Of a DNA stretch of 64,000 bases, positions 23,444 through 47,142 are shown in pieces (positions within the stretch are counted from its first letter, which is position 1; every line of letters starts with the position of its first letter). A program made the position numbers and the translations under genes. Where the stretch lies: assembly GCF_030165005.1 (NCBI RefSeq), contig NZ_JASNNW010000007.1:124001-188000 (forward strand), in the 5' to 3' direction. The notes beneath the pieces are model-generated. The model was not told where the DNA came from and made no database searches. It saw only the letters and a program-made list of their open reading frames with translations. The DNA comes from Blastococcus capsensis. GTDB taxonomy: Bacteria; Actinomycetota; Actinomycetes; Mycobacteriales; Geodermatophilaceae.

Positions 23444-24352
23444 TCACACCCTGCCCGGTCCAGGTGCAACCGGCTCGGGGGACGCCGTCCCAGCGGGACC
23501 GAACCCGTACCGGCGGGCGGGGTTGTCGACCAGGACGGCGTGCCGGACGGCCGGGTCGGGCACCCACCGCTCCAGCCGCCCGCGCATCCCGGCGGCGTCG
23601 GGCACGGGCAGCTGGACGCCCACGTGCGGCCAGTCGCTGCCCCACAGCAGGTTCTGCGGGCGCACCTCGACGAGCGCGCGGACCCGGGCGGCGATCGCCT
23701 CCTCGTGCCGTTCCCACGCCTCGGCGAACGCGGCGCCGCCGGCCTCGGCGTCGACCCCGGGCGGCAGCAGCCGCTCCAGCCCCGACAGCGTCACCCAGAT
23801 CCGGTCCTCCTCCAGCAGCTCCAGCACCAGCCGGACGGCGGGGTCGTCGAGTCCCACGTCCGACGGCAGGTAGCCGAGGTGGTCGAGGACCACCGGCGCC
23901 GGGCAGCGGCGGACGGCGTCGCCGAGCCGGTCGACGTGCCGGCGGACGTCGGTCCAGACCTCCACGTGCCAGCCCAGCGGCGCCACCGTCTCGCCGACCT
24001 CCACCAGGGACTCGACGGGCACACCACCGGGGTAGCCGTCCTGCACGCGGGTGCCGCGCACACCCACGGCGTGCATCTCGGCCAGCTCCTGCGGAGACGT
24101 GCCCGGCGCGACGCACGCCACGCCGCGCAGGGCGTCGGGCCGGGTCCGCAGCGCGGCGAGCAGGCACCGGTGGTCGTCGCCGTAGGCGCTGGGCTGGACC
24201 AGCACCCCGCGGTCGCACCCCGCGGCCCGCAGGTGCTCCGCGTGGTCGTGCACGTCGAACGCCGGTGGGTCGTAGGCGGCGCCACCGACGAGCCGGGACA
24301 TGTCGACGCCGTCGGCGACGAAGACGTGGCAGTGGGCATCGATACCGCTCAT
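23444..24352 (-). CDS. Amidohydrolase of the TIM-barrel LigI-like family
   Basis: 302 residues. DAHCHVF gives the HxH of strand 1, LDHLGY the strand-6/7 His, and LLWGSDWPH the final Asp, the layout of metal-independent or mononuclear 2-pyrone-4,6-dicarboxylate lactonase-like hydrolases. It probably opens a lactone or cleaves a C-C/C-O bond in a catabolic intermediate. ATG overlaps the upstream alpha/beta-hydrolase stop by 4 bp. Confidence 0.85.
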   Translation of the reverse strand: MSGIDAHCHVFVADGVDMSRLVGGAAYDPPAFDVHDHAEHLRAAGCDRGVLVQPSAYGDDHRCLLAALRTRPDALRGVACVAPGTSPQELAEMHAVGVRGTRVQDGYPGGVPVESLVEVGETVAPLGWHVEVWTDVRRHVDRLGDAVRRCPAPVVLDHLGYLPSDVGLDDPAVRLVLELLEEDRIWVTLSGLERLLPPGVDAEAGGAAFAEAWERHEEAIAARVRALVEVRPQNLLWGSDWPHVGVQLPVPDAAGMRGRLERWVPDPAVRHAVLVDNPARRYGFGPAGTASPEPVAPGPGRV

Positions 24353-25227
24353 CGGCGGTCCTCCGAAGGCTCGGCCGGGCCGTCGCCGGTGCGGGCCGCG
24401 GCCAGCTCGGCCAGCACCGGCAGCAGGTGGGTGCGGAACAGGGGGTAGTTCTCCGCCATGGGGAAGTGCCCGATCCCCGGCATGGTCCCGCCGCGGGCGC
24501 CCGGGATGGCCGCCAGCGCCGCTGCGGTGCCCTCGGGGCTGCAGGCGTGGTCGTACTCGCCGGTCAGCAGGTACACCGGGCACCGTGCGGTGTCGATGTC
24601 GCCGGCCCTCCCGCGCAGGTCCAGGTCCTCCGAGTAGAAGAACGTGTCCCCCCGGTAGATCCCCGGCCCGCCCTGGCTGTAGGTCCACCACACCTCGCGG
24701 CGGGCGACCTCGGGGCTGGACGGCGACATCAGGCTCGCCGTCCAGGAGGCGACGGCCTGCTGGGCGTTGATGTCGGGGTGCAGCGGCCAGTCCTGGAACC
24801 GCCCCTCGACGTGCAGCGCACCCGACAGCCCGATCACCCCGGCCCAGCGTTCCGGGTCCCGCCGGGCCAGCTCGATCACCAGCGAACCGGCCATGGAACA
24901 GCCGAGGACGACGGGCCGGTCGAGTTCCAGCGCCGCGCAGACGTCCTCGACGAGGGCCACGTACCGGTCGGTGGTGAGCAGGTACTCCTCGGTCCACCAG
25001 CCCTCCGGCGGCAGCGACCGGCCGTGCCAGGGCAGGTCGAAGGCGACCACCCGGTGCCGGCCGGTCACCTCCGGGTCGGTCAGCAGGTGCCGGAACTGGC
25101 GGCTGTCCGACCCCGCGGTGTGCAGGGCGAGCAGCACCGGCCCGCTGCCGGCCTCCTCGAAGTAGACGCGGTAGTCGGTGCCGGACGACCGGAGGTGGAC
25201 GTACCGGCCGACGACGTCCTCGATCAC
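24349..25227 (-). CDS. Alpha/beta-hydrolase
   Basis: 292 residues. The nucleophile elbow is LGCSMAGSL, with oxyanion HTAGSDSRQF, FDLPWHGRS, and an acid in LTGEYDHACSPEG and base His in GIGHFPM. Such enzymes act as C-C bond hydrolases or esterases (MhpC- or lactone-type). The GTG start at 25227 is chosen because GGAGGTGA lies 7 bases upstream and the stop of the SCP2-like gene overlaps it (GTGA). Substrate unknown. Confidence 0.87.
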   Translation of the reverse strand: MIEDVVGRYVHLRSSGTDYRVYFEEAGSGPVLLALHTAGSDSRQFRHLLTDPEVTGRHRVVAFDLPWHGRSLPPEGWWTEEYLLTTDRYVALVEDVCAALELDRPVVLGCSMAGSLVIELARRDPERWAGVIGLSGALHVEGRFQDWPLHPDINAQQAVASWTASLMSPSSPEVARREVWWTYSQGGPGIYRGDTFFYSEDLDLRGRAGDIDTARCPVYLLTGEYDHACSPEGTAAALAAIPGARGGTMPGIGHFPMAENYPLFRTHLLPVLAELAAARTGDGPAEPSEDRR

Positions 25228-25622
25228 CGCCGGATCACCTCCCCGCGCGCCGCCCGGTCGTGGAGCCTCGCGAGCTCCACCAGCCGGGTGATCACCCGCA
25301 GGTGCCGGATGAGCTGCTCGCGGCCGGCGACCACCTCGAGGCCGTCGGCCGCCTTGGTCAGGGCCAGCAGGTCGTGCCGGCGTGGCGCGGCGCCGGCGTC
25401 CACCAGCTCGCGCCAGGCGCCGACCGGCCCGCGCAGCTCCAGGTCTGCACCGGGGGTGCCGTCGTCGACGGAGACCGTGCCCCGGTCGTAGCGGAGCAGG
25501 ACGTCTCCCTCGTCGTCGGCCACCAGGCGGGCGGTGAAGACGGAGAACCGGCCGATGTGGGCGTTCTCCGGATCGGCGGCCACCGCGCGGGCCCAGCCGG
25601 CCAGCCACTCCCGCCCGGTCAT
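25224..25622 (-). CDS. Small protein, possibly SCP2-like lipid-binding
   Basis: 132 residues: MTGREWLAGWARAVAADPE, then a beta-rich centre (FSVFTARLVADDEGDVLLRY, PGADLELRGPVGAWREL) and a C-terminal helix. The profile resembles sterol-carrier-protein-2-like single-domain proteins that bind acyl-CoA or hydrophobic ligands, but the match is by eye and weak. It overlaps both neighbours by 4 bp and is therefore part of the operon. Confidence 0.6.
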   Translation of the reverse strand: MTGREWLAGWARAVAADPENAHIGRFSVFTARLVADDEGDVLLRYDRGTVSVDDGTPGADLELRGPVGAWRELVDAGAAPRRHDLLALTKAADGLEVVAGREQLIRHLRVITRLVELARLHDRAARGEVIRR

Positions 25623-26476
25623 GCCGGTAGCCTCCCGAGCACCCCGGCGATGCCGGCGAGCTCCGGCGACACCGGTTCGAGCCGGTCGAGCACGCCGGCG
25701 TCGTGGCCGGTGAGGACGTGCTCGACCGCCCCGGAGGCGAGCAGGTCGCGGACCGTCTGGAGACCCTGGTATGCGCCGGGCAGGTCGGTGACCGCGATGA
25801 AGGGCATGTCCCGTTCCAGCTCCTCGGTGAAGTGCACGGCGTCGGAGGCCAGCAGCACGACGCCCGCACCGGTCCGGACGGTGACCATGGCCTGCCCCGG
25901 CGTGTGCCCGCCGACCTCGGTGACGACGACGCCCGGCGCCACCTCCACGGAGCCGGTGAACCGGCGCAGCCGGCCCTCGGCCTCGGCCCGGGTCAGGGCC
26001 GCCACCTCGTCGGCCTCGGTGAAGTGCCCGATCAGCGGCTTGGCGGCCATCGGGGAGGTCCAGAAGTCGACCTCGGCACCGCTGACCACCACCGTCGCCG
26101 CGGGGAAGAGGTCGACGTTGCCGATGTGGTCGTAGTGCGCGTGGGTGACGACCAGGGGATGCGGCGCGGCGGTGTCCACCCCCAGCCGCCGGTACGCCTC
26201 GGCGGGGTCGACCAGCACCGTGCGCCCCCGCGCCTGCGCCGGCCCGCGGCCGAAGCCGGTGTCGACCAGGACGGTCGTGCTCCGGCTGCGCAGGATCCAC
26301 AGGTAGTAGTCGACAGTGAAGTCGGCGTCCGGCTCGCCGTACTGGGCGTAGTTCAGGAACACCTCGCTCCGCCGCGCCCGGCGGGTGCCGTGCCGGACGA
26401 CGACCACCTCGTAGACGTCGTCCGGCGTGGCGTCCGCTCCGGCTGCCATGCCCGCCATATCCCTCACCCCGGCCAT
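25619..26476 (-). CDS. MBL-fold metallo-hydrolase (quorum-lactonase-like)
   Basis: 285 residues. The metal-binding motif THAHYDHIGN (HxHxDH), later GGHTPGQAMV and LLASDAVHF supply the dinuclear zinc site of the AHL-lactonase/N-acyl-homoserine-lactonase branch. In this operon a catabolic lactone is the likelier substrate than a signal. The start is set at ATG 26476 because it overlaps the upstream stop as TGATG; a longer Arg-rich upstream extension is not protein-like. Confidence 0.85.
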   Translation of the reverse strand: MAGVRDMAGMAAGADATPDDVYEVVVVRHGTRRARRSEVFLNYAQYGEPDADFTVDYYLWILRSRSTTVLVDTGFGRGPAQARGRTVLVDPAEAYRRLGVDTAAPHPLVVTHAHYDHIGNVDLFPAATVVVSGAEVDFWTSPMAAKPLIGHFTEADEVAALTRAEAEGRLRRFTGSVEVAPGVVVTEVGGHTPGQAMVTVRTGAGVVLLASDAVHFTEELERDMPFIAVTDLPGAYQGLQTVRDLLASGAVEHVLTGHDAGVLDRLEPVSPELAGIAGVLGRLPA

Positions 26477-26886
26477 CAGGCCCCGCGGCCGCCCTCGTGC
26501 ACGGCGACGGTCGGCTCGAGGCCGTCGGCGCCGACGACCTCGCGCCACGCGTCGAAGCCGGCCTGGAACGCCACGATGCCGGCCTCCGGGAGGGCGATCT
26601 CGATGGCCTCGAGGATCTCCTGGGGGCTGACGCCCAGGTCAAGCGCCACCCGGATGTGGCTCTGGATGTGCCCCTTGGACGCCCGGATCACCGTCAGGCT
26701 GACGATGAAGATCAGTTCCTTGGTCTTGCGGTCGAGCCTGCGCTGGTCCAGATAGGCCGCGCCGACCAGCCCGTTGGCCGCCTGCAGGACCGGGAAGTCG
26801 TGCTTGGCCATGACCTTGTGGTAGTCGAGGACATAGCCCCGGGATCGGGCCATGTCGTCGATGTAGGCCTGCGGGTCGTCGGTCAC
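26476..26886 (-). CDS. Carboxymuconolactone decarboxylase-like (AhpD superfamily) protein
   Basis: 136 residues with the CMD core: LDRKTKELIFIVSLTVIRA, HIQSHIRVALDLGVSPQEI, then a helix with EIALPEAG. The catalytic CxxC of AhpD-type peroxidase partners is absent, being replaced by the SKGHIQSH region, so this is not an alkylhydroperoxidase; a decarboxylase or lactone-processing role or a structural role remains possible. ATG overlaps the dehydrogenase stop by 4 bp. Confidence 0.85.
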   Translation of the reverse strand: MTDDPQAYIDDMARSRGYVLDYHKVMAKHDFPVLQAANGLVGAAYLDQRRLDRKTKELIFIVSLTVIRASKGHIQSHIRVALDLGVSPQEILEAIEIALPEAGIVAFQAGFDAWREVVGADGLEPTVAVHEGGRGA

Positions 26887-27821
26887 GGGGTCTCCTCGTC
26901 GTCGGTTCCGGGTGGTGCCTGTCGGTCCCCGGTCCCGCTGCGCAGCGGGGCCCGGTTGACCGACTCGTAGTGGCGGGCGATCTCGGTGTGGTCTAGGCCG
27001 GCGCCGCCGAGGGCCTCGCGGGCCCGGACCGCCGCGGCGTACGCGGCGTCGGTGACCGGCGTGCTCGCCTCCTGCGCCGCCGCCAGCGACCGGGCGATGC
27101 CGAGGTCCTTGATCATCAGGTCCATGGCGAAGCCGGAGTCGTAGCTGCCGGTCAGGACGTGCTTCGGGTACTTGACCTCGGTGGCCTGGGACCGGCCGGT
27201 GGAGGCGTTCAGCACCTGGACCATCACCTCCGGCGCGATGCCGAAGCCCGCGGCGACGGTGAGCACCTCGGCGGCTGCCGCCAGGTTCGTCGCCGACAGC
27301 AGGTTGTTCAGCGCCTTGGCGGCGTGCCCGGCACCCGCGGCGCCCACCACGAGCACCGCACTCCCCAGCGGCTCCAGGTGCGGCCGGGCGCGCTCGACGT
27401 CCTCCGGATCGCCTCCGACCATGATCGACAGCTCTCCGGTGACGGCGCGGGCGACGCCCCCGGAGACGGGCGCGTCCACGTACCCGGTGCCGCGTGCCCG
27501 CGCGTCGGCGGCCAGCCGCCGGGTGCTGGCCGGCTCGGAGGAGCCCATGTCGACGACCAGCGCCCCGGCCGGCAGCCGGGCGAGCAGCCCGTCGGTCAGG
27601 AGCACCGCCTCGACGACCCGGCTGTCGGGCAGCATCAGGACGACGGTGTCGACGTGGTCCGGGACCTCGGCCAGGGTCGGCAGCGCCCGACAGCCCAGCT
27701 CCCCGGCCAGCGCGGCGGCGACCGCGGGGTCGGCGTCGAACAGCACCGTGTCGAATCGGGCGGCATGGCGGCGGGCCATGGGTGCACCCATGCGCCCCAG
27801 GCCCACGAAGAGGGTGCTCAC
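26883..27821 (-). CDS. NAD(P)-dependent beta-hydroxyacid dehydrogenase (3-hydroxyisobutyrate dehydrogenase family)
   Basis: 312 residues. N-terminal Rossmann GLGRMGAPMA, substrate-binding DAPVSGGVARA, and catalytic Lys in AGHAAKALNNLL mark the HIBADH/tartronate-semialdehyde-reductase family. The C-terminal 25 residues are Arg/Gly/Asp-rich and probably disordered. GTG 27821 overlaps the CoA-ligase stop (GTGA). Actual substrate unknown. Confidence 0.88.
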   Translation of the reverse strand: MSTLFVGLGRMGAPMARRHAARFDTVLFDADPAVAAALAGELGCRALPTLAEVPDHVDTVVLMLPDSRVVEAVLLTDGLLARLPAGALVVDMGSSEPASTRRLAADARARGTGYVDAPVSGGVARAVTGELSIMVGGDPEDVERARPHLEPLGSAVLVVGAAGAGHAAKALNNLLSATNLAAAAEVLTVAAGFGIAPEVMVQVLNASTGRSQATEVKYPKHVLTGSYDSGFAMDLMIKDLGIARSLAAAQEASTPVTDAAYAAAVRAREALGGAGLDHTEIARHYESVNRAPLRSGTGDRQAPPGTDDEETP

Positions 27822-29515: not shown

Positions 29516-29559
29516 CACGATCGCTCCTCGTACGGGTGGGTGGGGCTCGGATGCAGGGC

Positions 29560-30551
29560 TCAGCTCGGTGCGGCGGCGGCCGGGGTGCAGGTGAGGACGA
29601 CCTTTCCGGCGACGCTGCCGGACGCGACGGCCTCGAGGGCGGCACCGGCCTGCTCGAGCGGGTAGGTGCGGGCGACCGGGACGGTGAGCCGCCCGTCGAC
29701 GTACAGCTGCAGCAGGTGCTCGATCGCGGCCCGCACCGACTCCGGTTCGCGGTCGCGGTAGTCGGAGACCTGCAGCCCGAGGACGGCGAGGTTCTTGACC
29801 AGGACGTGGCCGGCCTTGATGGTCGGCAGGTCGCCGGAGGCGAAGCCGATCACGACCAGCCGCCCCTCCCATGCGGTACAGCGCAGCGACTGGGCGAACA
29901 CGTCACCCCCCACGAGCTCGAGGACCACGTCCGCCCCGCGGCCCTCGGTCAGCGCCAGGACGTCGTCCCGCATGGACGTGCCCGCCATCACCACCGAGTC
30001 GGCCCCTTGCTGCCGGGCGAGCGCGGCCCGTTCCTCGTCCTGGGCCACGGCGATCACCGTCGCGCCGAGCGCCCTGGCGATCTGCACGCCGGCCGAGCCG
30101 ACGCCGCCGCCGGCGCCGGTGACCAGGACGGTCTCCCCCGGCCGCAGACCGGCCCGCCGCACCAGCGCGAAGTGCGCGGTGATGGCGCCCAGCCCGAAAG
30201 CGGCCGCGTCGACGAAGGGCACCTCGTCGGGCAGGGTCACCACCTGGGGCTCGGGCACGGCGACCAGCTCGGCGTAGCCGCCGTGCTCGATCTGGGCGAG
30301 GACCCGGTCGCCGACGGTGAGCCGGTCGACCCCCTCCCCGACCGCGCGGACGGTTCCGGCGATCTCCTTGCCGGGGCTGAACGGGCGCTCCGGGAGGATC
30401 TGGTAGCTGCCGGCCACGACGAGGACGTCCGGGAAGTTGACCCCGGCCGCCGCCACCTCGACGAGCACCTCGCCCGGCCCGGCCACCGGATCGGCGAGCT
30501 CGCCGGTGACGAGGGTCTCCGGCGGGCCGAACTCCTGCACCAGTGCTGCTT

Positions 30552-30555
<4 letters not shown>
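29560..30555 (-). CDS. Zinc-free NADPH:quinone oxidoreductase-type MDR
   Basis: 331 residues. MKAALVQEFGPPE start, VNFPDVLVVAGSYQ, nucleotide-binding VTGAGGGVGSAGVQIA and VVLELVGGDVF fit the quinone/enoyl reductase branch with bound NADPH. It overlaps the CaiB gene by 4 bp. It may reduce an enoyl-CoA or quinone in the pathway; no substrate evidence. Confidence 0.9.
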
Positions 30556-31714
<1,159 letters not shown>

Positions 31715-31718
<4 letters not shown>

Positions 31719-32749
31719 CCGCCGGCCCCCACCAGCGTGCGCGCCGCCGTCCGGGCGGCCTCGACGGCGCCGCAGGCGGCCCGCAGCGACACCGCGTCCC
31801 GCAGCAGGCCCTCCACGGGGTACTCGGTCATGTAGCCGTAGCCACCGTGCGACTGCACGGCGGCCGCCGCGACGTCGATGGCCGCGTCGCAGGCGGGGAG
31901 GAGGGCCGCGGCCACGGCGTCCGGCCGGTCGAGGTTGGCGGTGACCGCGGAAACGAGGAGCGCCCGGGCGGTGGCGGCCTGCGCCGACAGCGACGCGCGG
32001 ACGGTCGGGAGCTCGGTGAGCGGGGCGCCGAACTGCACGCGGCCGGCGCTGTAGGCCAGCGCCGCGGCGGCAGCGGCCTCGGCGATGCCGGCGGCGACGG
32101 CGGCCGCGCCGGCGTCCAGGAGGGTGCGGGCCCGCCTGACGTGCGGTCCGCGCAGCACGTCGCCCTCGGGCACCGCCGCGTCCAGCCGGACGCCGACGGT
32201 CAGCGCGCCGTCGAGGCCGGTACGCGCGACCGGGGTCCCGAACGAGATGCCCTCCGGCGGGACGAGGACGGCGGTGTCGGCGTCGAGCAGCAGCACCAGC
32301 CGGGGCTCCCGGCCGGCCGGGTCGATCCGGTCCAGGGCGCCGGTCAGCCGCCCCCCGGTGAGCGTGACCGACCCCGGGTCGCCCGCCGTCACCGCCACCG
32401 GGGCGCCGTCGTGCAGGCCGTCGAGCAGCGCGGGCGTCCGGCGCGCGGCCGCCAGGGCCGGCGCCGCGGCGTGCGCCTGCACCGACGCCCACGCCAGCGC
32501 CGGCCACGTGCCCCCGAGCCGGGCCAGGGCGACCAGCGTGGTCGGCGCCGGCGCTCCCCCGCCGCCGTCGGACTCCGCCACGCCGAGCGTCCACAACCCC
32601 TGGTCGGCGAGGACCCGGCGGGCGGCGTCGACGTCGTCCGGCCGGTCGTCGCCCACGCGGGCGAGCGGGCCCCCGGTGAGGTCGTCGACGAGGTCGAGGA
32701 CCGCCTGCTGCTCGTCGTCGAGCCGGGGGCCGGCCCAGGGCCGCCTCAC
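31715..32749 (-). CDS. Acyl-CoA-dehydrogenase-like protein, divergent
   Basis: 344 residues, shorter than usual (about 380) and Ala-rich. The C-terminal half retains the fold marker QSHGGYGYMTEYPVEGLLRD and AYSAGRVQFGAPL, but the middle beta domain is short and the FAD-contact motif (V/I)TEPGAGSD and the YEGT/YDGT base motif are missing. This is the look of a non-catalytic partner as in alpha2beta2 acyl-CoA dehydrogenases of actinobacterial steroid breakdown. The start GTG 32749 overlaps the BadI-like gene (GTGA). Confidence 0.78.
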
Positions 32750-33525
32750 GACCAGAACGTTTCCGGGTCCGGCGTCCGCTTGGCGCCGAAGGCGTTCCCC
32801 GTCTCGTGCGCCTCCTTGGTGGCCAGGTAGAGGGTGAGCTGCTGGTCGTGGGCCATGCGCGCCTGCCCCAGCACCCCGGTGTGCCGGGCGGAGAACGCAC
32901 CCTTGAGCGCCCCGATGGCCATCGGGCTGCGGGTGGCGATCTCCGCGGCCACCTCCTGCGCCCGCGACACCGCCTGGCCGGCCGGGACGACCTCGTTGAC
33001 CAGTCCCATGGCCAGCGCCTGGGCCGCGGTGTACTTGCGGTTGAGGTACCACATCTCCTTGGCCCGCTTCCGGCCGATGGAGTCCTCCAGGTACCAGGTG
33101 CCGTAGCCGGCGTCGAAGCTGCCGACCATGGGCCCGACCTGCCGGAAGACGGCGTTCTCCGACGCGATGGTCAGATCGCAGATGTTGTGCAGCACGTTGC
33201 CGCCACCCACCGCGAAGCCGTTCACCGCCGCGACGACCGGCTTGGCGATGGTGTCGATCGCCTCGTACACGTCGATGATCGGCAGCACCTGGGAGTAGTC
33301 CAGCGACGTGGTCTCGTCGTGCTCCCCGCCGATGCAGAAGAACTTGTCGCCCGCCCCGGTGAGCACCGCGGCACGCAACGCGGGATCGGTGCGGAACCGC
33401 TGGAGGGCGTCCTTGAGCTCCAGCAGGGTCTGCGCCCGCAGCTTGTTGCCGGCGTCCTCCCGGTCGATGGTCAGGGTCAGGACCGGCCCCGAGGTCTCGC
33501 TCCGGATGTCGGTGTAGTCGCTCAT
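32746..33525 (-). CDS. Crotonase-family hydrolase of the MenB/BadI clade (2-ketocyclohexanecarboxyl-CoA hydrolase-like)
   Basis: 259 residues. The oxyanion segment GFAVGGGNVLHNICDLTIAS, VGPMVGSFDAGYG and KRAKEMWYLNRKYTA are characteristic of naphthoate synthase (MenB) and BadI, which condense or hydrolyse beta-keto-CoA rings by (retro-)Dieckmann chemistry. No other men genes are present, and the neighbours are acyl-CoA catabolic enzymes, so a BadI-type ring cleavage that would yield a dicarboxyl-CoA is more plausible than menaquinone synthesis. ATG start; overlaps both neighbours by 4 bp. Confidence 0.82.
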   Translation of the reverse strand: MSDYTDIRSETSGPVLTLTIDREDAGNKLRAQTLLELKDALQRFRTDPALRAAVLTGAGDKFFCIGGEHDETTSLDYSQVLPIIDVYEAIDTIAKPVVAAVNGFAVGGGNVLHNICDLTIASENAVFRQVGPMVGSFDAGYGTWYLEDSIGRKRAKEMWYLNRKYTAAQALAMGLVNEVVPAGQAVSRAQEVAAEIATRSPMAIGALKGAFSARHTGVLGQARMAHDQQLTLYLATKEAHETGNAFGAKRTPDPETFWS

Positions 33526-34397
33526 CGAACCTCTCCGTGCTCGGTGGTGCCCGCGCGGAAGCCTCGGCCGCTCTTGGTGCCGAGGTAGCCGGCCGCGACC
33601 ATCTGGTGCAGCAACGGCGGCGGGGCGAACTGGGGATCGAGCGTCGCCTCGTAGGCGGACTCGGTGGCGTGCCGGTGCACGTCGATGCCGATCAGGTCCA
33701 GCAGTGCCAGCGGGCCGAGCTTGTAGCCCAGCCCCAGCTGGATCGCGACGTCGATGTCCTCGGCGCTGGCCAGGCCGTCGTCGTACTCCTGCACGACGTC
33801 GTTGAGGTAGGGCATCAGCAGCCGGTTGACCAGGAAGCCGGGCCGGTCCTTGACCTCCACCGGCGACTTGCCGATGTCCTCGACGAACGCGACCAGGTCG
33901 GCCACGACGTCGGCGTCGGTCTGCAGCGCCCGCACCACCTCGACCAGCGCCATCACCGGCGCCGGGTTGAAGAAATGCAGCCCGGCCATGCGGCCGGGGG
34001 CGGACAGCGACGCGGCCAGGTCGGTCACCGACAGCGCCGAGGTGTTGGTCGTGAGCACCGTCTCCGGCCCGACGGTCTCCGCGACCCGCCCGAGCAGGTC
34101 GACCTTGACGTCGTGCTGCTCGACGACCGCCTCGATCACCAGGTCGACACCGGCGAGGTCGGCGAGGTCGGCGGTGCCCCTGATCCGGCCGAGGACGGCG
34201 TCCCGCTCCTCGGCGGTGGTCTTGCCGCGGCTGACCCCGCCGTCGAGGAAGGTGCGCACCGCCTCGGTGCCGCGGTCGATCCGCGCCTGCTCGGTCTCCA
34301 GGACGACGACGTCGCGGCCGGAGGCGGCCACGACCTGGGCGATCCCGGCCCCCATCGTCCCGAAACCCAGGACGGCGACCCGCGGGAAGGTCCTCAT
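33522..34397 (-). CDS. 3-hydroxyacyl-CoA dehydrogenase (first copy)
   Basis: 291 residues. GFGTMGAGIAQ for NAD, IEAVVEQHDVK, and the catalytic-His segment GLHFFNPAPVM with the DRPGFLVNRLL signature. Oxidises L-3-hydroxyacyl-CoA to 3-ketoacyl-CoA. The ATG at 34397 has CGGAG 7 bases upstream; a longer N-terminus is possible but less protein-like. 25 bp after the second copy. Confidence 0.92.
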   Translation of the reverse strand: MRTFPRVAVLGFGTMGAGIAQVVAASGRDVVVLETEQARIDRGTEAVRTFLDGGVSRGKTTAEERDAVLGRIRGTADLADLAGVDLVIEAVVEQHDVKVDLLGRVAETVGPETVLTTNTSALSVTDLAASLSAPGRMAGLHFFNPAPVMALVEVVRALQTDADVVADLVAFVEDIGKSPVEVKDRPGFLVNRLLMPYLNDVVQEYDDGLASAEDIDVAIQLGLGYKLGPLALLDLIGIDVHRHATESAYEATLDPQFAPPPLLHQMVAAGYLGTKSGRGFRAGTTEHGEVR

Positions 34398-34422
34398 GCT
34401 CGAACTCCGTTCGCTTCGGGTC

Positions 34423-35301
34423 TCAGGCACCGAAGGCCCTGGTGGTCTCGTAGGTGTAGAAGCCGCGGCCGGTCTTCCGGCCCAGGTCGCCGGCGGCGAT
34501 CATGCGGTCGACCAGCGGCGGCGGCGCGAAGCGCGGCTCGCGCAGCTGCTCGTACAGCCGCATCGACACCGCCTTGTGCACGTCGAGGCCCACCACGTCG
34601 AGCAGCTGGAAGGGACCCATGGGGTGACGGAGCGCGCCCAGCACGGCCCGGTCGATCGACTCCACGGTGCCCAGTCCGGCCTCCAGGGCCCGGATGCAGT
34701 TGTTCTCCCACGGGATGAGGAAGCGGTTGAGGATGAAGCCGGGGCGGTCCTTGGTGATGACCGTCGTCTTGCCCACGCCGGCGAGGAACTCCAGCGACCG
34801 TTTCGTGGCCTCCGGAGCGGTGTGCCGGCCCTCGGCCACCTCGACCAGCTTCATCAGCTGGGCGGGGTTGCAGTAGTGGGTGCCGACCACCCGCTCGGGG
34901 TGCCGGGAACCCGAGGCGATCGACGTGACCGACAGCGTCGAGGTGTTGGTGTGGAACAGCGTGTCGCGGGAGACGACGTCGTCCAGCTCGGCGAAGAGGG
35001 TCTTCTTCACCTCCAGGTCCTCGAACACCGCCTCGACGACCACGTCCGCCGGGGCGAGGTCGCGCAGCTCGGTGGTGCCCGACAGGTTGGCCAGGGCGGC
35101 CTCGAGCTGGTCCTCGGTGAGCTTGCCGAGCGATGCACTCCTGCGCAGGAAGCTCTCGACGGTGTCGAGGCCGCGCTGCACGGCGGCGTCGTCGAGGTCC
35201 CGGAGGATGGTGCGGTGTCCCGCTCGGGCGGCCACGACGGCGATCCCCGCCCCCATGGTGCCGCCGCCGATGACGGCGACGGTGAGCTGGTCCTGGGTCA
35301 T
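34423..35301 (-). CDS. 3-hydroxyacyl-CoA dehydrogenase (second copy)
   Basis: 292 residues, paralogous to the neighbour: AVIGGGTMGAGIAV, VEAVFEDLEVKK, GTHYCNPAQLMKLVE and DRPGFILNRFL. The HYCNP rather than HFFNP environment suggests a different acyl group from the first copy, so the pair may act at different steps (ring or open chain). ATG; 49 bp from the SDR gene. Confidence 0.92.
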   Translation of the reverse strand: MTQDQLTVAVIGGGTMGAGIAVVAARAGHRTILRDLDDAAVQRGLDTVESFLRRSASLGKLTEDQLEAALANLSGTTELRDLAPADVVVEAVFEDLEVKKTLFAELDDVVSRDTLFHTNTSTLSVTSIASGSRHPERVVGTHYCNPAQLMKLVEVAEGRHTAPEATKRSLEFLAGVGKTTVITKDRPGFILNRFLIPWENNCIRALEAGLGTVESIDRAVLGALRHPMGPFQLLDVVGLDVHKAVSMRLYEQLREPRFAPPPLVDRMIAAGDLGRKTGRGFYTYETTRAFGA

Positions 35302-35350
35302 CGGTCCTTCTTCTTCCTCGCCGGGGCGGGAGTCGGGTGCGGGTGAGCGG

Positions 35351-36130
35351 TCATCGGGCCGTCTGGCCGCCGTCGACGACGACCACCTCGCCGGTCATGA
35401 AGTCCGACGCGGGGCCGGCCAGCAGCAGCAGCCAGGGGGCGAGTTCGTGCGGCTCGCCCATCCGGCGGGCGGGGACCGCGCGCAGCACCCGGGAGAGCGC
35501 CTCGCCGTCGGCCCGCAGCCCGGCGTTCATGTCGGTGGCGAAGTAGCCGGGCGCCAGGGCGTTGACCTGGACCCCGTGGCGGGCCCACTCCACGGCCATC
35601 GACCGGGTGAAGGCCACGACCGCGGCCTTGGAGGCGCAGTAGGCCGCGTGGCCGGATACCCCCTTGAACGCGAAGTTGGAGGCGATGTTGATCACCTTGC
35701 CCGAGCACTGGGCCACCATGTGCGCGCCGGCGGCGCGGGTGGCCAGGTAGGTGCCTCGGACGTTGGTGTCCATGACCCGGTCCCAGTCCGACGGGTCCTG
35801 GTCGAGCAGCGGGGTGCTGTCGATGACCCCGGAGTTGTTCACCAGGACGTCCAGGCCGCCGAGCTCGGCGACCGTGGTGTCGACCAGCCGCTGGACGGCC
35901 GCGGGGTCGGTGACGTCGGTCGGCACGACCAGCGCCCGCCGTCCGGTGCTCTCGATCTCGGCGGCGACCGACTCCAGCTGGTCCCGGCTGCGCGCGGCCA
36001 CCGCCACGTCGGCGCCGGCACCGGCCAGCGCCACCGCCAGGGCCCGGCCGAGCCCACGGCCGGCGCCGGTGACGACGGCGACCTTGCCCAGCAGGGGCTG
36101 CTGCTCCGGGGCTTGCTGCGCGGCGGTCAC
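35351..36130 (-). CDS. SDR-family dehydrogenase/ketoreductase
   Basis: 259 residues. VTGAGRGLGRA, NNSG, catalytic Ser in INIASNFA and YCASK (Tyr/Lys), and PGYFATDM. Classical SDR, able to oxidise a ring hydroxyl to a ketone, the step done by BadH in cyclohexanecarboxylate breakdown. GTG start overlaps the acyl-CoA dehydrogenase stop by 4 bp. Confidence 0.9.
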   Translation of the reverse strand: MTAAQQAPEQQPLLGKVAVVTGAGRGLGRALAVALAGAGADVAVAARSRDQLESVAAEIESTGRRALVVPTDVTDPAAVQRLVDTTVAELGGLDVLVNNSGVIDSTPLLDQDPSDWDRVMDTNVRGTYLATRAAGAHMVAQCSGKVINIASNFAFKGVSGHAAYCASKAAVVAFTRSMAVEWARHGVQVNALAPGYFATDMNAGLRADGEALSRVLRAVPARRMGEPHELAPWLLLLAGPASDFMTGEVVVVDGGQTAR

Positions 36131-37383
36131 CGGAGGGCCCCCTTCAGCCGTCCAGCGGTGTCACGGGCGATCAGGAGCCGTTGCACTTCGTTCGTCCCGT
36201 CGTAGATCTGGGTCACCTTGGCGTCCCGGAGATAGCGCTCGATCCCGTGCACGGCCAGGTCGCCGACCCGTCCGAGCACCTTCGTGGCCGCCACGGCGAC
36301 CTGCCAGCCGATGTCGGTGCAGGTCTGCTTCATCAGCGCGATCGTGCCGCCGGCCGCCCCGCCGGTCCGGTCCACCTCGCGGGCGACGCCGAGGAGCGTG
36401 AGCCGGCCGCGCAGGATGGCGCCGCGCATGTCGGCCAGGGCGAAGGCCACGTCGGGCGGCAGGTCGGCGCCGTGCACCCGGTGCAGTGCGGCCAGCGCGT
36501 GCGCGTAGGCCCCCCGCGCCAGCCCGACGCCCTGCGCGGCCGCGCTGATCCGGGACTTCGTCACCGAGCTGACCACGATCGCCCAGCCCTCGCCCTCCCC
36601 GCCGAGGCGGTGGGAGACGGGTACCGGCGTCCGGTCGAAGAACACCTCCGCGGTGGTGGAGCCGTGCATCCCGGTCTTGGCCATGGGCGCGCCCCGGGAG
36701 AGCCCCGGGGCGTCGCCGTCGACGACGAACGCGGTGATGCCGCGCCGGCCGGCGCGCGGGTCGACGGTGGCGAAGCAGATGACCACGTCGGAGCGGTCGC
36801 CGGTGGTGATGAAGGTCTTCGACCCGGTGATCGCGTACCCGCATGCCCGCCCGTCCGCGTCCGTCTCGGCCACCGCGCGGGTCCGCAGGGACGAGGCGTC
36901 GCTGCCGGCCCCCGGTTCGGTGACGCCGAGCGAGCCGTACCGGCTGCCGTCGACCAGGCCGGGGACGTACTGCCGCGCGAGGTCGGGGCTGCCCGAGTGC
37001 AGGATCGGGGAGGCGGCGTGCATCTGGGTCATGTAGACCAGGCTCGTGGCCGGGCACCCGGCGGTGATCTCCTCCATCGCCGCCGCGTAGGCCACCGTGC
37101 TGTCCGCGCTCCCGCCGTGCTCCTCCGGCACCAGCAGACCGCCGAGACCGGCCCGGGCCAGCGCCTGGTAGCTGTCGTGGGCGAAGACGTGGTCCCGGTC
37201 GCGGGCGGCCGCGCCCGGGGCGACGTGCTCGGCGACCACCTCGCGGGTGCGCGTCCGTACCTCGCGCTCCCGAGGGTCGAGCAGCGCGTCGGCGACCTCC
37301 TCGTCCAGCGCGCCGTGCAGCGCGAGGTAGGCGTCCGGCTCGGCGTCGAACAGCGGTTCCCCGGCGGTGCGGGAGCCGGTCAT
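36127..37383 (-). CDS. Acyl-CoA dehydrogenase
   Basis: 418 residues with the full fold: GLLVPEEHGG, VTEPGAGSDASSLRT for FAD, KTFITTGD, and IYDGTNEVQR. The base position carries Asp (YDGT) instead of the commoner Glu (YEGT); this variant is also seen in ordinary actinobacterial enzymes, so by itself it does not prove alicyclic substrates. An unusual N-terminal extension of about 30 residues. It could introduce the ring double bond. ATG overlaps the hydratase stop. Confidence 0.92.
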   Translation of the reverse strand: MTGSRTAGEPLFDAEPDAYLALHGALDEEVADALLDPREREVRTRTREVVAEHVAPGAAARDRDHVFAHDSYQALARAGLGGLLVPEEHGGSADSTVAYAAAMEEITAGCPATSLVYMTQMHAASPILHSGSPDLARQYVPGLVDGSRYGSLGVTEPGAGSDASSLRTRAVAETDADGRACGYAITGSKTFITTGDRSDVVICFATVDPRAGRRGITAFVVDGDAPGLSRGAPMAKTGMHGSTTAEVFFDRTPVPVSHRLGGEGEGWAIVVSSVTKSRISAAAQGVGLARGAYAHALAALHRVHGADLPPDVAFALADMRGAILRGRLTLLGVAREVDRTGGAAGGTIALMKQTCTDIGWQVAVAATKVLGRVGDLAVHGIERYLRDAKVTQIYDGTNEVQRLLIARDTAGRLKGALR

Positions 37384-38186
37384 GCCTCCTCCTCCGGACG
37401 CGGGGCGGCGGCGAACCGCGGGGGGCGACGGGCCTTGAAGGCGGCGATGCCCTCGGCCGCCTCGGCGGAGCCGGTGACCAGGCCGGCCAGCGCGGTCTCG
37501 AACGCCAGGCCGGTCTCGAGCGGCGCGTCGGCTCCGTGCCGCAGCGCCAGCAGCACCGCCCGCACCGCCCGGGGCCCGCGGGCCGCCACCTGGGCGGCCA
37601 GCTCCTGCGCCGTCGCCAGCACGTCGTCGACCGGGACCGGCGGCACCGGCGTCAGGCCGAGGGCGTAGGCGCGGTCGGCGGGGATCCGGGCCCCGGTGAG
37701 CATGGTGTGCGCCGCGACCGGCTGCCCGACCCTGCGGACCAGCCGCTGGGTGCCGCCGTAGCCGGGCACGAGCCCGAGCCCGGTCTCGGGCAGGCCGAGC
37801 TGGGCGTTGTCGGCCAGGACCGCGAACGTGCACGCCAGCACCACCTCGAAACCGCCGCCCAGAGCCAGCCCGTTGACGGCGGCGACCACCGGGACGGGGC
37901 AGCGCTCGATCCGCCCGACCACCGCCTGACCGGCGCCGAGGACGTCGTAGGCGTCGTCGGCCGACAGCCCGGCGAGCTCGTCGAGGTCGGCGCCGGCGCT
38001 GAAGGCGCGGTGCCCGGTGCCGGTGAGCACGATCGCCCGGGCGCCATCGGCCGGGAGCCCGGCGAGTGCCGCGTCGAGGTCGCGCAGCACCCGGGCGTTC
38101 AGCGCGTTGTACACGTCGGGCCGGGTGATCCGGATGGTCGCCACCGGGCCGTCCCGGTCGACCTCGACGACGGCGGAGCCGCTCAC
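37380..38186 (-). CDS. Enoyl-CoA hydratase
   Basis: 268-residue crotonase: RPDVYNALNARVL, AFSAGADLDEL, LALGGGFEVVLAC, and LPETGLGLVPGYGGTQRL with one catalytic Glu. The first Glu of rat hydratase is replaced (LADNAQLG), as in many bacterial members with altered mechanism. It would hydrate the ring enoyl-CoA (BadK-like step). GTG overlaps the CaiB stop. Confidence 0.9.
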   Translation of the reverse strand: MSGSAVVEVDRDGPVATIRITRPDVYNALNARVLRDLDAALAGLPADGARAIVLTGTGHRAFSAGADLDELAGLSADDAYDVLGAGQAVVGRIERCPVPVVAAVNGLALGGGFEVVLACTFAVLADNAQLGLPETGLGLVPGYGGTQRLVRRVGQPVAAHTMLTGARIPADRAYALGLTPVPPVPVDDVLATAQELAAQVAARGPRAVRAVLLALRHGADAPLETGLAFETALAGLVTGSAEAAEGIAAFKARRPPRFAAAPRPEEEA

Positions 38187-39451
38187 GACACCCTCCTGCC
38201 GGCGGTGGGAGCAGGCGCGGCGACGGCGCCGGAGGCGAGGAGGCCGTCGATGGCCCCGGCATCGAATCCGGCCTGCCGCAGCACCTCGACCGTGTGCTCC
38301 CCGAGCTCGGGGAACCGCTCGTTGCGGGGCTCGGGGATCGACGCCAGCCGGAAGGGGCTGCGCACGCCGTTGAGCACGCCGTCGAAACCGGGGACCGGCA
38401 GGATCGCGCCCCGGGCGACCACCTGCGGGTCGGCCGTCACCTCGGCCAGCCCCTGCACGAGGGAGGCCGGCACGCCGGCGTCTCCCAGGACGGCGAGCCA
38501 CTCGGCCGCCGGCCGTCGCGCGAGGACCCCGGTGATCGCGGCGATGAGCTCCCCCCGGTGCGCACGCCGGCCGGCGTTGTCGCGGAGCCGGTCGTCGTCG
38601 GCGAGGGCGGTGAGGCCGACGGCGGCGCAGAACCGCCGCCAGATCACGTCGTTGCCGATCGCGATGACGATGTCCCGGTCGGCGGTCGGGAAGGGCTGGT
38701 ACACGGCCAGGACCGAGTCGGTCCCCCCGCTGGGAGCCGGCTCCGGCTCACCGGCCAGGTAGGCCGCCACCCGCGGCGCGAGCAGGGCCAGGTCGGAATC
38801 CAGGAGCGAGACGTCGACGAGGTCGCCCTGCCCGGTGGCGCGCTGCCGGACGACGGCGGCGGTGACGGCCAGCGCCGCCGCCATCCCGGTGACGATGTCG
38901 GAGAGCGCCGTCGAGACGCGCTGGGGGGATCCACCGGCCGGGCCGGTGACCGACATCAGGCCGGACCGGGCCTGGGCGACGAGGTCGTACCCGGGCAGCG
39001 CGGCGTCGGGCCCGGTCAGCCCGAGGCCCGACATCGCGCAGTAGACCAGCCGCGGATGGCGTGCCCGGACGTCGTCGGGGGTCAGCCCGAGGGGCGCGAG
39101 CTTCGACGGGTTGAGGTTCTCGACGAGGACGTCGGCGCCGGCTAGGAGCCGGTGGAGGACGGCGATCCCGTCCCCGGACCGGAGGTCGACCGCGACGCTG
39201 CGCTTGTTGCGGTTGGCCGAGGCGAACCAGGCGGATGCGCCGTCGACGCTCGGCGGGCTCCACCAGCGGGCGTCGTCACCGGTGCGTGGGCGCTCCACCT
39301 TCACGACGTCGGCGCCGAGGTCAGCCAAATACATGGAGGCGGTCGGGCCGGCGTAGGACGTCGACATGTCGATCACCCGGAGCCCCTCCAGGGGCGCCTG
39401 GCACCCCGCCCCGGTTCTCGTCGATGACACTGTTCCGCACCGCCCCTTCAT
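38183..39451 (-). CDS. CaiB/BaiF family CoA-transferase (second copy, operon head)
   Basis: 422 residues. LRVIDMSTSYAGPTASMYLADLGADVVKVE, NRNKRSVAVDLRS, catalytic Asp in LPGYDLVAQARSG, and FRLASIPEPR. Transfers CoA to a carboxylic acid, a likely entry reaction for the pathway. ATG 39451 is 20 bases after a -10 element; a GTG at 39430 preceded by AAGGGGCGG is an alternative start. Expressed from the divergent promoter at 39471-39500. Confidence 0.92.
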   Translation of the reverse strand: MKGRCGTVSSTRTGAGCQAPLEGLRVIDMSTSYAGPTASMYLADLGADVVKVERPRTGDDARWWSPPSVDGASAWFASANRNKRSVAVDLRSGDGIAVLHRLLAGADVLVENLNPSKLAPLGLTPDDVRARHPRLVYCAMSGLGLTGPDAALPGYDLVAQARSGLMSVTGPAGGSPQRVSTALSDIVTGMAAALAVTAAVVRQRATGQGDLVDVSLLDSDLALLAPRVAAYLAGEPEPAPSGGTDSVLAVYQPFPTADRDIVIAIGNDVIWRRFCAAVGLTALADDDRLRDNAGRRAHRGELIAAITGVLARRPAAEWLAVLGDAGVPASLVQGLAEVTADPQVVARGAILPVPGFDGVLNGVRSPFRLASIPEPRNERFPELGEHTVEVLRQAGFDAGAIDGLLASGAVAAPAPTAGRRVS

Positions 39452-41259: not shown

Positions 41260-42075
41260 ATGGAAGACAAACCCGGAACCCACCCCGAGCCCCCGCCGGG
41301 CGCCCCGGCCGGGGCGGGCCCTGGCAGACGAGGGGACGCAGTGGCGGAATCCGTGTCGGTGCACGGCAGCATCGGCAAGAAGGTGCTGCGGCCCCGCCAG
41401 CAGGTCGAGGACCAGATCAAGGCGGCCATTCTCTCCGGCTCGGTGCGTCCGGGCGACCGGCTGCCGGGCGAGGTCGAACTGGCCCGGCAGTTCGCGGTCA
41501 GCCGCACGACCGTGCGCGAGGCCCTGCGGTCCCTGTCCACGCAGAGCCTGATCACCAAGACCCCCGGGGCCGGGGGCGGCAGCTTCGTCCGCAACGTCGA
41601 CCACTCCGCGCTGCGCAGCGCGCTCGTCGACTCCGTGCACCACCTGCTCGCGCTCGGCACGATCGAGTTCGAGGAGGTCGCGCTGGTCCGGCAGCACCTC
41701 GAGGTGCCGGCCGTGCGCCTGGCGGCCGTCCACCGCACCGAGGAGGACCTGCAGGAACTGCGGGACATCGTGGCCCTGCAGAAGTCGATCTCGGTGGAGG
41801 ATCCCCGGGTGCCGGCCCTGGACGAGCAATTCCACGGGGCGATCGCCCGGGCCTCCGGCAACCGGGTGCTGGCCTCGTTCGTGAGCGCGCTGCACCTCGA
41901 GACCGAGCCGGTGCACTACCTCGACCTCTCCCCCGAGGTGGGCCGGACCACCGTGCGCCAGCACCAGCGGATCGTGCGCGCGCTCGCCGACCGGGATCCC
42001 GCAGCCGGCGAGGAAGCGATGATCGAGCACCTCACCTACCTGCGCGAGCACCTGCTGGCCTACCAGCAGCGCTGA
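41260..42075 (+). CDS. GntR-family regulator with FCD (FadR-like) effector domain
   Basis: 271 residues (or 244 from GTG 41341 with GAGGGGACG upstream). Winged helix about 40-105 with PGDRLPGEVELARQF and SRTTVREALRSL, then an FCD all-helical domain with conserved Asp/His (DEQFHGAIAR, EHLTYL). FCD domains bind small organic acids through a metal. 42 bp downstream of the transporter; candidate repressor of both divergent transcripts through the palindromes in the 39.5-39.7 kb gap. Confidence 0.9.
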   Translation: MEDKPGTHPEPPPGAPAGAGPGRRGDAVAESVSVHGSIGKKVLRPRQQVEDQIKAAILSGSVRPGDRLPGEVELARQFAVSRTTVREALRSLSTQSLITKTPGAGGGSFVRNVDHSALRSALVDSVHHLLALGTIEFEEVALVRQHLEVPAVRLAAVHRTEEDLQELRDIVALQKSISVEDPRVPALDEQFHGAIARASGNRVLASFVSALHLETEPVHYLDLSPEVGRTTVRQHQRIVRALADRDPAAGEEAMIEHLTYLREHLLAYQQR

Positions 42076-44079: not shown

Positions 44080-44110
44080 GGCAACTCGCTCTCGGAGGCG
44101 ACAGGCTCTC

Positions 44111-44125: not shown

Positions 44126-44151
44126 AGTCGCCGTCACCAGAGGAGGAGTTC

Positions 44152-46031: not shown

Positions 46032-46042
46032 GCGGCCCGGCC

Positions 46043-47125: not shown

Positions 47126-47142
47126 GGCTGTTCTCTCCTCGG

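What the first reader, a model, noticed from the sequence alone, without database searches (positions are those of the whole stretch)
23444..39451. A compact operon fit for breakdown of an alicyclic (ring) carboxylic acid
The sequence shows, on one strand and mostly with 1-4 bp overlaps, AMP-ligase, two CaiB/BaiF CoA-transferases, acyl-CoA dehydrogenases, enoyl-CoA hydratase, SDR, two 3-hydroxyacyl-CoA dehydrogenases, and a MenB/BadI-clade hydrolase (32746-33525). Established knowledge: in Rhodopseudomonas cyclohexanecarboxylate degradation, AliA-AliB-BadK-BadH-BadI perform the same order of reactions. Each step has a candidate here, plus extra lactonase/LigI/hydrolase genes. The substrate could be a ring acid of different structure, e.g. 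a terpenoid or naphthenic acid. I know of no described actinobacterial set with exactly this content.
Basis: partly seen in the sequence, partly recalled or inferred. Interest (0 to 1): 0.72.

Follow-up and report, generated by a model that had tools for sequence, protein, structure and literature searches.

The report
Uncharacterised alicyclic-acid ring-opening operon
An actinobacterium carries an 18-gene set that probably breaks down a greasy ring-shaped acid by opening its ring with a little-known cousin of two vitamin K and benzoate enzymes; its core recurs in many other bacteria, and I found no paper that describes it.

Summary
The gene set is real: 18 minus-strand genes (39451 down to 21834; 15 of 17 junctions overlap by 1-8 bp) beside a divergent MFS transporter and GntR regulator. 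The hydrolase (32746-33525) is neither MenB nor BadI: it falls in a third clade (bootstrap 100, SH-aLRT 100) yet keeps MenB/BadI active-site residues in 76 of 76 sampled clade members. The genome has its own MenB elsewhere and no BadI. Core genes A, B, E, F, G each recur in 42-44 of 44 actinobacterial loci and, rearranged, in proteobacteria. Of 12 chosen genomes with this clade, 2 also hold an over-cut-off BadI and 3 a BadI-type protein, so the substrate is probably not plain cyclohexanecarboxylate.

Corrections: the two acyl-CoA dehydrogenases look like complementary halves of a split (alpha2beta2-type) enzyme known from steroid degradation; one 'CaiB/BaiF transferase' has racemase residues; an unnamed small protein models as SCP2-like. 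I infer a hydrophobic, probably branched ring acid (terpenoid, naphthenic or steroid-derived). Substrate and ring hydrolysis are untested. Actinobacterial bad/ali clusters are in print, but this is a different lineage. Verdict: new variant of a known kind.

The parts
38183..39451 (-). A: family III (CaiB/BaiF) CoA-transferase; best PDB sequence match succinate-HMG CoA-transferase
   Evidence: PF02515 411 bits; 9br6 E 5e-78; transferase-type Tyr155 and Asp185 in 61 of 61 rows (roles recalled)
37380..38186 (-). B: enoyl-CoA hydratase
   Evidence: PF00378 183.5 bits; present in 42 of 44 actinobacterial loci
36127..37383 (-). C: acyl-CoA dehydrogenase, catalytic half of a proposed split pair (acid kept, FAD-contact motifs lost)
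   Evidence: Asp at catalytic site 39 of 39, GG and RxQ[FS]G motifs 0 of 39
35351..36130 (-). D: short-chain dehydrogenase/reductase
   Evidence: PF00106/PF13561
34423..35301 (-). E: 3-hydroxyacyl-CoA dehydrogenase
   Evidence: PF02737+PF00725; 43 of 44 loci
33522..34430 (-). F: second 3-hydroxyacyl-CoA dehydrogenase
   Evidence: PF02737+PF00725; 43 of 44 loci
32746..33525 (-). G: third-clade MenB/BadI-type crotonase, proposed ring-opening beta-keto-acyl-CoA hydrolase
31715..32749 (-). H: degenerate acyl-CoA dehydrogenase, proposed partner half (FAD-contact motifs kept, catalytic acid lost)
   Evidence: GG and RxQ[FS]G motifs 38 of 38, acid at catalytic site 0 of 38
30552..31718 (-). I: family III protein of alpha-methylacyl-CoA racemase type
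   Evidence: near-full-length match to racemases 2g04/8rmw/1x74; His146/Asp176/Glu261 in 42 of 42 rows
29560..30555 (-). J: PIG3/zinc-ADH-type MDR reductase
   Evidence: PF00107; TIGR02824 245 of 296.8 bits
27818..29518 (-). K: acid-CoA ligase, nearest model cyclohexanecarboxylate-CoA ligase (AliA)
   Evidence: TIGR03208 437 of 792 bits, next best 360
26883..27821 (-). L: 3-hydroxyisobutyrate-dehydrogenase-like beta-hydroxyacid dehydrogenase
   Evidence: PF03446+PF14833
26476..26886 (-). M: carboxymuconolactone-decarboxylase-family protein
   Evidence: PF02627
25619..26476 (-). N: metallo-beta-lactamase-fold lactonase-like protein
   Evidence: PF00753; AidB-like 73 of 360 bits
25224..25622 (-). 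O: small protein without family hit; model looks SCP2-like (sterol-carrier fold)
   Evidence: 0 families; AF2 pLDDT only 67; the 14 Foldseek hits at E<=0.001 are all sterol-carrier-protein or UbiJ-SCP2 entries
24349..25227 (-). P: alpha/beta hydrolase
   Evidence: PF00561
23444..24352 (-). Q: Amidohydro_2 (LigI-family) hydrolase
   Evidence: PF04909 125 bits
21834..23447 (-). R: second acyl-CoA ligase
   Evidence: PF00501; NF006020 638 of 677 bits
20346..21770 (-). S: NADP succinic-semialdehyde dehydrogenase type; membership of the operon uncertain
   Evidence: NF006915 773.5, cut-off 730; 63 bp gap
19300..20292 (-). T: PIG3-type quinone reductase; membership uncertain
   Evidence: TIGR02824 449, cut-off 296.8; 53 bp gap
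39877..41217 (+). divergent MFS transporter
   Evidence: PF07690; kept in 8 of 10 loci of the near subclade and 0 of 34 of the rest at the thresholds
41260..42075 (+). GntR/FCD regulator, probable regulator of the operon
   Evidence: PF07729+PF00392; kept in 30 of 44 actinobacterial loci

Best explanation
An operon for the CoA-dependent catabolism of a hydrophobic, probably alkyl-branched alicyclic carboxylic acid. Inferred route: the acid becomes a CoA thioester (ligase K, or transferase A); the alpha carbon is epimerised if needed (racemase I); the C/H split acyl-CoA dehydrogenase makes the ring alpha,beta-enoyl-CoA; B hydrates it; D, E or F oxidises the ring hydroxyl to a beta-ketone; G opens the ring hydrolytically (reverse Dieckmann), giving a dicarboxylic mono-CoA that goes through further beta-oxidation (E/F, J, and thiolases elsewhere in the genome). 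L-R are accessory steps (lactone or ester opening, hydroxyacid and aldehyde oxidation, a lipid carrier) found mainly in near relatives. Shown by sequence: gene content and order, conservation, clade, active-site residues, the complementary losses in C and H, the residue types of A and I. Inferred: substrate, order of steps, that C and H form one enzyme, that G hydrolyses a ring.
For: Core genes G 44, E 43, F 43, A 42, B 42 of 44 actinobacterial loci, then C 39, H 38, D 37, K 28, I 25 (loci chosen as the best matches to G, several cut by contig ends, L073 and L074 from one genome). Rearranged set in 36 other loci: K 33, B 25, C 24, E 21, A 21, J 20, D 19, I 17. G forms its own clade, 100/100 (76 rows), with Gln, Gly, Ser, Asp, Trp and oxyanion glycines of the MenB/BadI site in 76 of 76 rows and the Tyr in 74 (roles recalled, E. 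coli positions counted on the alignment). The 44 best-ranked Foldseek hits of the G model are MenB entries, before any other crotonase. C and H: acid kept 39 of 39 against 0 of 38, FAD motifs 0 of 39 against 38 of 38; proteobacterial single homolog has acid and GG in 20 of 20 and RxQ in 19 of 20; the arrangement described for steroid acyl-CoA dehydrogenases (PMC8399759, passages). Racemase residues in I 42 of 42. SCP2-like model of O. Steroid-type genes beside the operon in some relatives. Own MenB over its cut-offs on another contig (497.6 of 378); no BadI in the genome.
Against: No experiment. No thiolase in the Blastococcus set. G carries clade-only invariant residues (Arg128, Glu147 in 76 of 76, Trp144 in 74 of 76) and a shorter active-site loop, so its reaction could differ. 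D matches no BadH model among those shown and C fits AliB poorly. The accessory L-M-N genes are a general module: 0 of 20 loci with an N homolog in the order of Lacisediminimonas have a BadI or G homolog nearby, so they give no link to ring opening. Whether the clade is nearer BadI or MenB is not settled. The G model is middling, with its weakest part at model residues 130-145, around the catalytic Asp; the O model is weak (pLDDT 67). The C-H complex was not modelled.
Confidence: 0.6

Rival explanations
1. G cleaves an open-chain, alpha-branched beta-ketoacyl-CoA by hydrolysis (a stand-in for thiolase), so the operon degrades a branched linear acid and no ring is involved.
For: No thiolase in the Blastococcus operon; racemase-like I fits alpha-methyl acids; reverse-Claisen chemistry is the same for rings and chains (recalled).
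Against: Nine actinobacterial loci hold a gene of one protein cluster (cl2) of which two members were checked and are thiolases, within 10 kb of G, so there G is not a replacement for thiolase; the nearest characterised kin (MenB, BadI) make or break rings; the split dehydrogenase and the SCP2-like protein point to bulky substrates.
Confidence: 0.2
2. It is an ordinary bad/ali cyclohexanecarboxylate pathway that has merely diverged.
For: Same step logic; ligase K nearest AliA; cyclohexane-1-carbonyl-CoA dehydrogenase is the second-best model for C.
Against: Separate clade; of 12 chosen genomes with a G-clade protein, 2 also carry an over-cut-off BadI (531 and 476 bits) and 3 a BadI-type protein of 326-337 bits, below cut-off; a bad/ali-like set with its own clade of hydrolase exists in the same family without the G operon at that place (G029, locus L041; its hydrolase scores 315 on BadI and 339 on MenB, under both cut-offs).
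Confidence: 0.12
3. G is a synthase (MenB-like Dieckmann cyclisation) and the operon is biosynthetic.
For: MenB fold and residues.
Against: Beta-oxidation enzymes, GntR regulator, MFS or ABC uptake genes, ligases and hydrolases around it; the genome's MenB (over cut-off) is on C50 and menD on C27, away from the operon.
Confidence: 0.05

Closest known systems
bad/ali pathway (Rhodopseudomonas palustris, Aromatoleum sp. CIB; BadI = 2-ketocyclohexanecarboxyl-CoA hydrolase)
   Same: Order of chemical steps; AliA-like ligase; BadI-type active site in G
   Different: G outside the BadI clade and below its cut-off; split dehydrogenase; racemase-like I; two HADHs; CoA-transferase; different gene order
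chcpca cluster of Rhodococcus aetherivorans BCP1 (PMC5906575, passages)
   Same: Actinobacterial, aerobic, ring-acid catabolism with BadI-like protein, SDR, ligase, dehydrogenases
   Different: The paper's table, as shown in the passage, lists no CaiB or HADH gene; R. koreensis holds a cluster of that general make-up (L182) as well as the G operon
KstR2 steroid ring C/D module (EchA20, IpdAB, IpdC; IpdE1-IpdE2)
   Same: Ring-opening crotonase with an alpha2beta2 acyl-CoA dehydrogenase
   Different: EchA20 (placed by gene order) lies outside the MenB/BadI/G group; no IpdAB-type CoA-transferase family among the Pfam hits of genes A-T
mrc ring-cleavage genes of Castellaniella defragrans (PMC4109377, passages)
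   Same: Terpenoid acid, hydratase-dehydrogenase-hydrolase logic
   Different: MrcE is 88% identical to an Azoarcus BadI according to the paper, so it would belong to the BadI clade (not placed in my trees)
[quoted passage not shown]
   Same: Fold, about 40% identity, catalytic residues
   Different: Separate clade; genome has its own MenB; catabolic neighbours

Membership tests
BadI (TIGR03210) | score over curated cut-off 467.6 | tested here: not met
   217 bits
BadI (TIGR03210) | falls in the BadI clade | tested here: not met
   BadI-type rows 95/89 and G rows 100/100 are separate
BadI (TIGR03210) | MenB/BadI catalytic residues | tested here: met
   76 of 76 rows for Gln, Gly, Ser, Asp, Trp (roles recalled)
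BadI (TIGR03210) | hydrolyses 2-ketocyclohexanecarboxyl-CoA | not testable with these tools
   needs enzyme assay
MenB (PRK07396/TIGR01929) | score over curated cut-off | tested here: not met
   251 of 380 and 234 of 342.7 bits; the genome's own MenB scores 410.5 of 342.7 on TIGR01929 and 497.6 of 378 on PRK08321
MenB (PRK07396/TIGR01929) | the MenB of the genome, or linked to men genes | tested here: not met
   own MenB on C50, menD on C27
EchA20 | groups with EchA20 | tested here: not met
   two EchA20 rows, identified by gene order only, lie outside
alpha2beta2 acyl-CoA dehydrogenase (ChsE4/5, IpdE1/E2 type), genes C and H | only one partner has the catalytic acid | tested here: met
   C 39 of 39 Asp, H 0 of 38; here Asp, whereas the review names glutamate
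alpha2beta2 acyl-CoA dehydrogenase (ChsE4/5, IpdE1/E2 type), genes C and H | FAD bound at the interface of the two partners | tested here: inconclusive
   FAD-contact motifs only in H (38 of 38 against 0 of 39; motifs recalled); complex not modelled
alpha2beta2 acyl-CoA dehydrogenase (ChsE4/5, IpdE1/E2 type), genes C and H | adjacent genes | tested here: not met
   D, E, F and G lie between C and H in the window; the review passage states adjacency for Scd1A/Scd1B only
alpha-methylacyl-CoA racemase (gene I) | His/Asp/Glu catalytic set | tested here: met
   42 of 42 rows; roles recalled
alpha-methylacyl-CoA racemase (gene I) | racemase activity | not testable with these tools
   needs assay
AliA (TIGR03208), gene K | score over cut-off 792.3 | tested here: not met
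   437 bits, best model for K

The most novel reading that the evidence does not exclude
The G clade and its core partners are a further bacterial route of CoA-dependent alicyclic ring opening, beside bad/ali and the steroid EchA20-IpdAB route: a widespread, partly plasmid-borne common lower pathway for branched ring acids left over from terpenoids, steroid-like polycycles or naphthenic acids, into which different upstream modules (HsaA/HsaC-like, KstD/KshA-like, lactonase-rich as in Blastococcus) feed. The clade's invariant Arg128/Glu147/Trp144 would recognise a feature that plain cyclohexane acids lack.
Probability: 0.35. Interest if true: 0.75.

Novelty: new variant of a known kind. Interest (0 to 1): 0.55.

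Why it matters
Ring-cleaving hydrolases known to me in this group are few (BadI, EchA20, with MenB running the reverse reaction). A third conserved clade with a steroid-type split dehydrogenase, found in actinobacteria and, on chromosomes and plasmids, in proteobacteria, would point to a general way of mineralising terpenoid and naphthenic ring acids. It gives named genes, tractable strains and a single decisive enzyme assay.

Tried and rejected
Rejected: G as MenB or as BadI. G as EchA20.

Rejected as evidence: the accessory genes. L, P, N and a CMD gene stand beside a bona fide BadI in Lacisediminimonas (L185), and L and N homologs beside G in L117, L118 and L121. It looked like an independent link, but a control showed N-like genes in 46 of 300 genomes of that order (the query's own genome is one of the 46). 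Of 20 such loci fetched (one per genome, from the best 24 rows after the query's own; some cut by contig ends), 10 keep CMD and/or HIBADH at over 100 bits and 0 hold a BadI or G homolog. That the order is Burkholderiales is recalled.

The IpdAB-like CoA-transferase pair of R. opacus pROB02 is only 27-30% identical to the pair in a KstR2-like region, and neither got an NCBIfam hit at E<=1e-20, so it is not named IpdAB. Literature: search (open-licence PMC papers only) gave no paper on this gene content; papers were seen as listings or passages, none in full; subscription papers are not covered.

Group labels: MenB type I/II, BadI-type and 'mid' were set by me from resemblance. A check put the own MenB and 4 of the 6 type I rows over MenB cut-offs. 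The actinobacterial BadI-type rows are under the BadI cut-off: L014 scores higher on MenB (339) than on BadI (315), L035 higher on BadI (351); most join the true BadI rows at 95/89.

Rows dropped: one search left out, before the tree, near copies and unrelated hydratases (26 loci: L001, L002, L004, L006-L012, L029-L032, L143, L144, L156-L162, L166, L173, L177) and 19 further loci, mostly proteobacterial, to thin the set; rows under 230 residues or with a stop were also skipped; 110 rows went in. The tree used 26 of the 76 G rows. In some searches homologs covering under 70% of the query, under set identity floors or with stops were skipped (kept beside the window's own: C 38+20, H 37, I 24+17, A 41+19). 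The place of the G clade differs between runs: nearer MenB (88), nearer BadI (96/96); one search is unrooted.

Full report
The window is part of a Blastococcus genome (nearest named relatives of gene G: Blastococcus sp. VKM Ac-2987 and B. saxobsidens, 97-98% identity); it is contig C46, 124001-188000, of a 4.39 Mb assembly.

What is there. On the minus strand, genes A to R run from 39451 to 21834 with 15 of 17 junctions overlapping (13 by 4 bp, one by 8, one by 1) and two gaps of 49 and 41 bp. Pfam and NCBIfam give: A CoA-transferase III, B enoyl-CoA hydratase, C acyl-CoA dehydrogenase, D SDR, E and F 3-hydroxyacyl-CoA dehydrogenases, G MenB/BadI-type crotonase, H a protein with only the acyl-CoA dehydrogenase C-terminal domain, I family III protein, J PIG3-type reductase, K AMP-ligase, L HIBADH-like, M CMD-like, N metallo-beta-lactamase fold, O no family, P alpha/beta hydrolase, Q Amidohydro_2, R AMP-ligase; S and T follow after gaps. 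Divergently lie an MFS transporter and a GntR/FCD regulator.

The hydrolase. G scores 251 of 380 bits against MenB (PRK07396), 234 of 342.7 against TIGR01929 and 217 of 467.6 against BadI. The genome's own MenB is on contig C50 (39% identity to G; 497.6 of 378 bits on PRK08321), menD on C27, and no protein in the genome scores above G on the BadI model. A quick tree of 110 rows puts 76 G-type rows on one side of a branch (SH-aLRT 100); careful trees of 61 and 58 rows give 100/100 for 26 G rows, and in the latter 100/97 for MenB and 95/89 for the BadI-type rows. Whether G is nearer BadI or MenB differs between runs. Proteins identified as EchA20 by gene order (two SDRs, crotonase, IpdA-like, IpdB-like; order from Table 1 of PMC5380842, passages) fall outside. 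Of 12 genomes that I chose because they hold a G-type protein, 2 also hold a BadI over the cut-off (531.5 and 475.7 bits) and 3 a BadI-type protein below it (325.6-336.9). So G is a paralogous third clade. The BadI-type label of the actinobacterial rows rests on the tree and neighbours; one of them, L014, scores higher on the MenB model.

Active site. Counting on the HMMER alignment to E. coli MenB (4els), Gln154, Gly156, Ser161, Asp163, Trp184 and Tyr258 (roles recalled) correspond to window residues 129, 131, 136, 138, 159 and 233. The first five, and the oxyanion glycines, are kept in 76 of 76 G-clade rows, the Tyr in 74; in the MAFFT alignment the Tyr column is mixed Phe/Tyr/Ala in the other groups. 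Arg128 and Glu147 (76 of 76) and Trp144 (74 of 76) are special to the clade: the 32 MenB, BadI-type and 'mid' rows have Gly, Lys or Ala at the first, Ala or Ser at the second, and Ala, Gly or Ser at the third with one Trp. The loop after the GGE motif is shorter than in MenB. The AF2 model (pLDDT 74.7, weakest at model residues 130-145) finds MenB in its 44 best PDB matches.

The split dehydrogenase. In the actinobacterial loci C keeps an acid at the catalytic site (YDGT, 39 of 39) but has neither FAD-contact motif (0 of 39); H keeps these motifs (38 of 38) but has no acid at the catalytic site (0 of 38). The single proteobacterial homolog keeps the acid and the GG motif in 20 of 20 and the RxQ motif in 19 of 20. 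This is the division of labour described for alpha2beta2 steroid acyl-CoA dehydrogenases (PMC8399759, passages), though there the acid is glutamate, and here four genes lie between C and H. The catalytic position (YEGT of MCAD) and the motifs are recalled.

Transferase and racemase. A has the transferase-type GYD Tyr and the Asp in 61 of 61 rows; I has GHD His, Asp and Glu in 42 of 42 and aligns nearly full-length with alpha-methylacyl-CoA racemases, although its best E-value is a CoA-transferase over the N-terminal 270 residues. A racemase suits a branched or ring acid with a chiral alpha carbon.

Conservation. Among 44 actinobacterial loci, which were fetched as best matches to G (several cut by contig ends; two from one Amycolatopsis genome): G 44, E 43, F 43, A 42, B 42, C 39, H 38, D 37, GntR 30, K 28, I 25, J 19; M, N, P, Q in 7 each, all within a near subclade of 10 loci; L in 10, two of them outside it (thresholds 45% identity, 38% for H-T, 80 bits). 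Among 36 other loci (Pseudomonadota and one Myxococcota): K 33, B 25, C 24, E 21, A 21, J 20, D 19, I 17, and L and N in 3 each (80 bits, strand of G). Annotated plasmids show such sets, with a sigma-54 activator in three of the four proteobacterial plasmids read and GntR or IclR in the four actinobacterial ones. In the genus, 3 of 22 other genomes have G at 97-98%; a fourth has a 44% relative of another clade. In the class sample, 9 of 394 genomes have a match at E <= 1e-60, the window's own included; six of the nine, the window included, are at 64% or more.

Substrate clues. O models as an SCP2-like carrier (pLDDT 67; the 14 Foldseek matches at E <= 0.001 are sterol-carrier or UbiJ-SCP2 entries). 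Some relatives carry, beside the operon, BphC/HsaC-like and HsaA-like genes (L073, L074, L075, L082 share these gene clusters; one protein of each was typed, both below curated cut-offs) or KstD-like (699 of 789 bits), KshA-like and FMO-like genes (R. koreensis L080). R. opacus B4 has a mycofactocin-coupled SDR about 19 kb upstream of G. All point to greasy polycyclic or terpenoid acids, none proves it. Nine loci (cl2) hold a gene of a cluster whose two checked members are thiolases.

Comparison with print. bad/ali and chcpca are described (PMC9795900, PMC5906575, PMC4591350: passages); Castellaniella MrcE is 88% identical to a BadI according to the paper (PMC4109377, passages); a limonene ring-cleavage operon in a methanogenic culture names a hydrolase LrcA whose clade I could not test (PMC12583861, passages). 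My searches found no paper on this operon.

Conclusion.

Noticed in passing
window 25619-27821 (L, M, N) and loci L222-L241: A CMD-HIBADH-metallo-beta-lactamase unit recurs in the order of Lacisediminimonas without any ring hydrolase nearby (10 of 20 N-type loci keep CMD and/or HIBADH); its own function is unclear.
   Followed up: partly
L073/L074/L075/L082 and L080: The core operon sits beside steroid-like aromatic-ring genes (extradiol dioxygenase, HsaA-like monooxygenase; KstD-like and KshA-like in R. koreensis).
   Followed up: partly
L143, L148 (R. opacus plasmids), L098: A type I CoA-transferase gene or pair lies just before a second family III gene and A in reduced clusters that lack C and H.
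   Followed up: partly
L015, L017, L019, L020 (G052, G030, G008, G027): A further small clade next to the actinobacterial BadI-type proteins, present in another genome of the same genus (G008); context not studied.
   Followed up: no
window 43591-47356: A second GntR/FCD regulator with an MFS gene, an RraA-like gene and an isocitrate/isopropylmalate-dehydrogenase-type gene: perhaps another small catabolic set.
   Followed up: no
L041:6804-11224 (same family, G029): A separate bad/ali-like set (ligase, SDR, dehydrogenase, BadI-type protein) in the family of the window's genome.
   Followed up: partly
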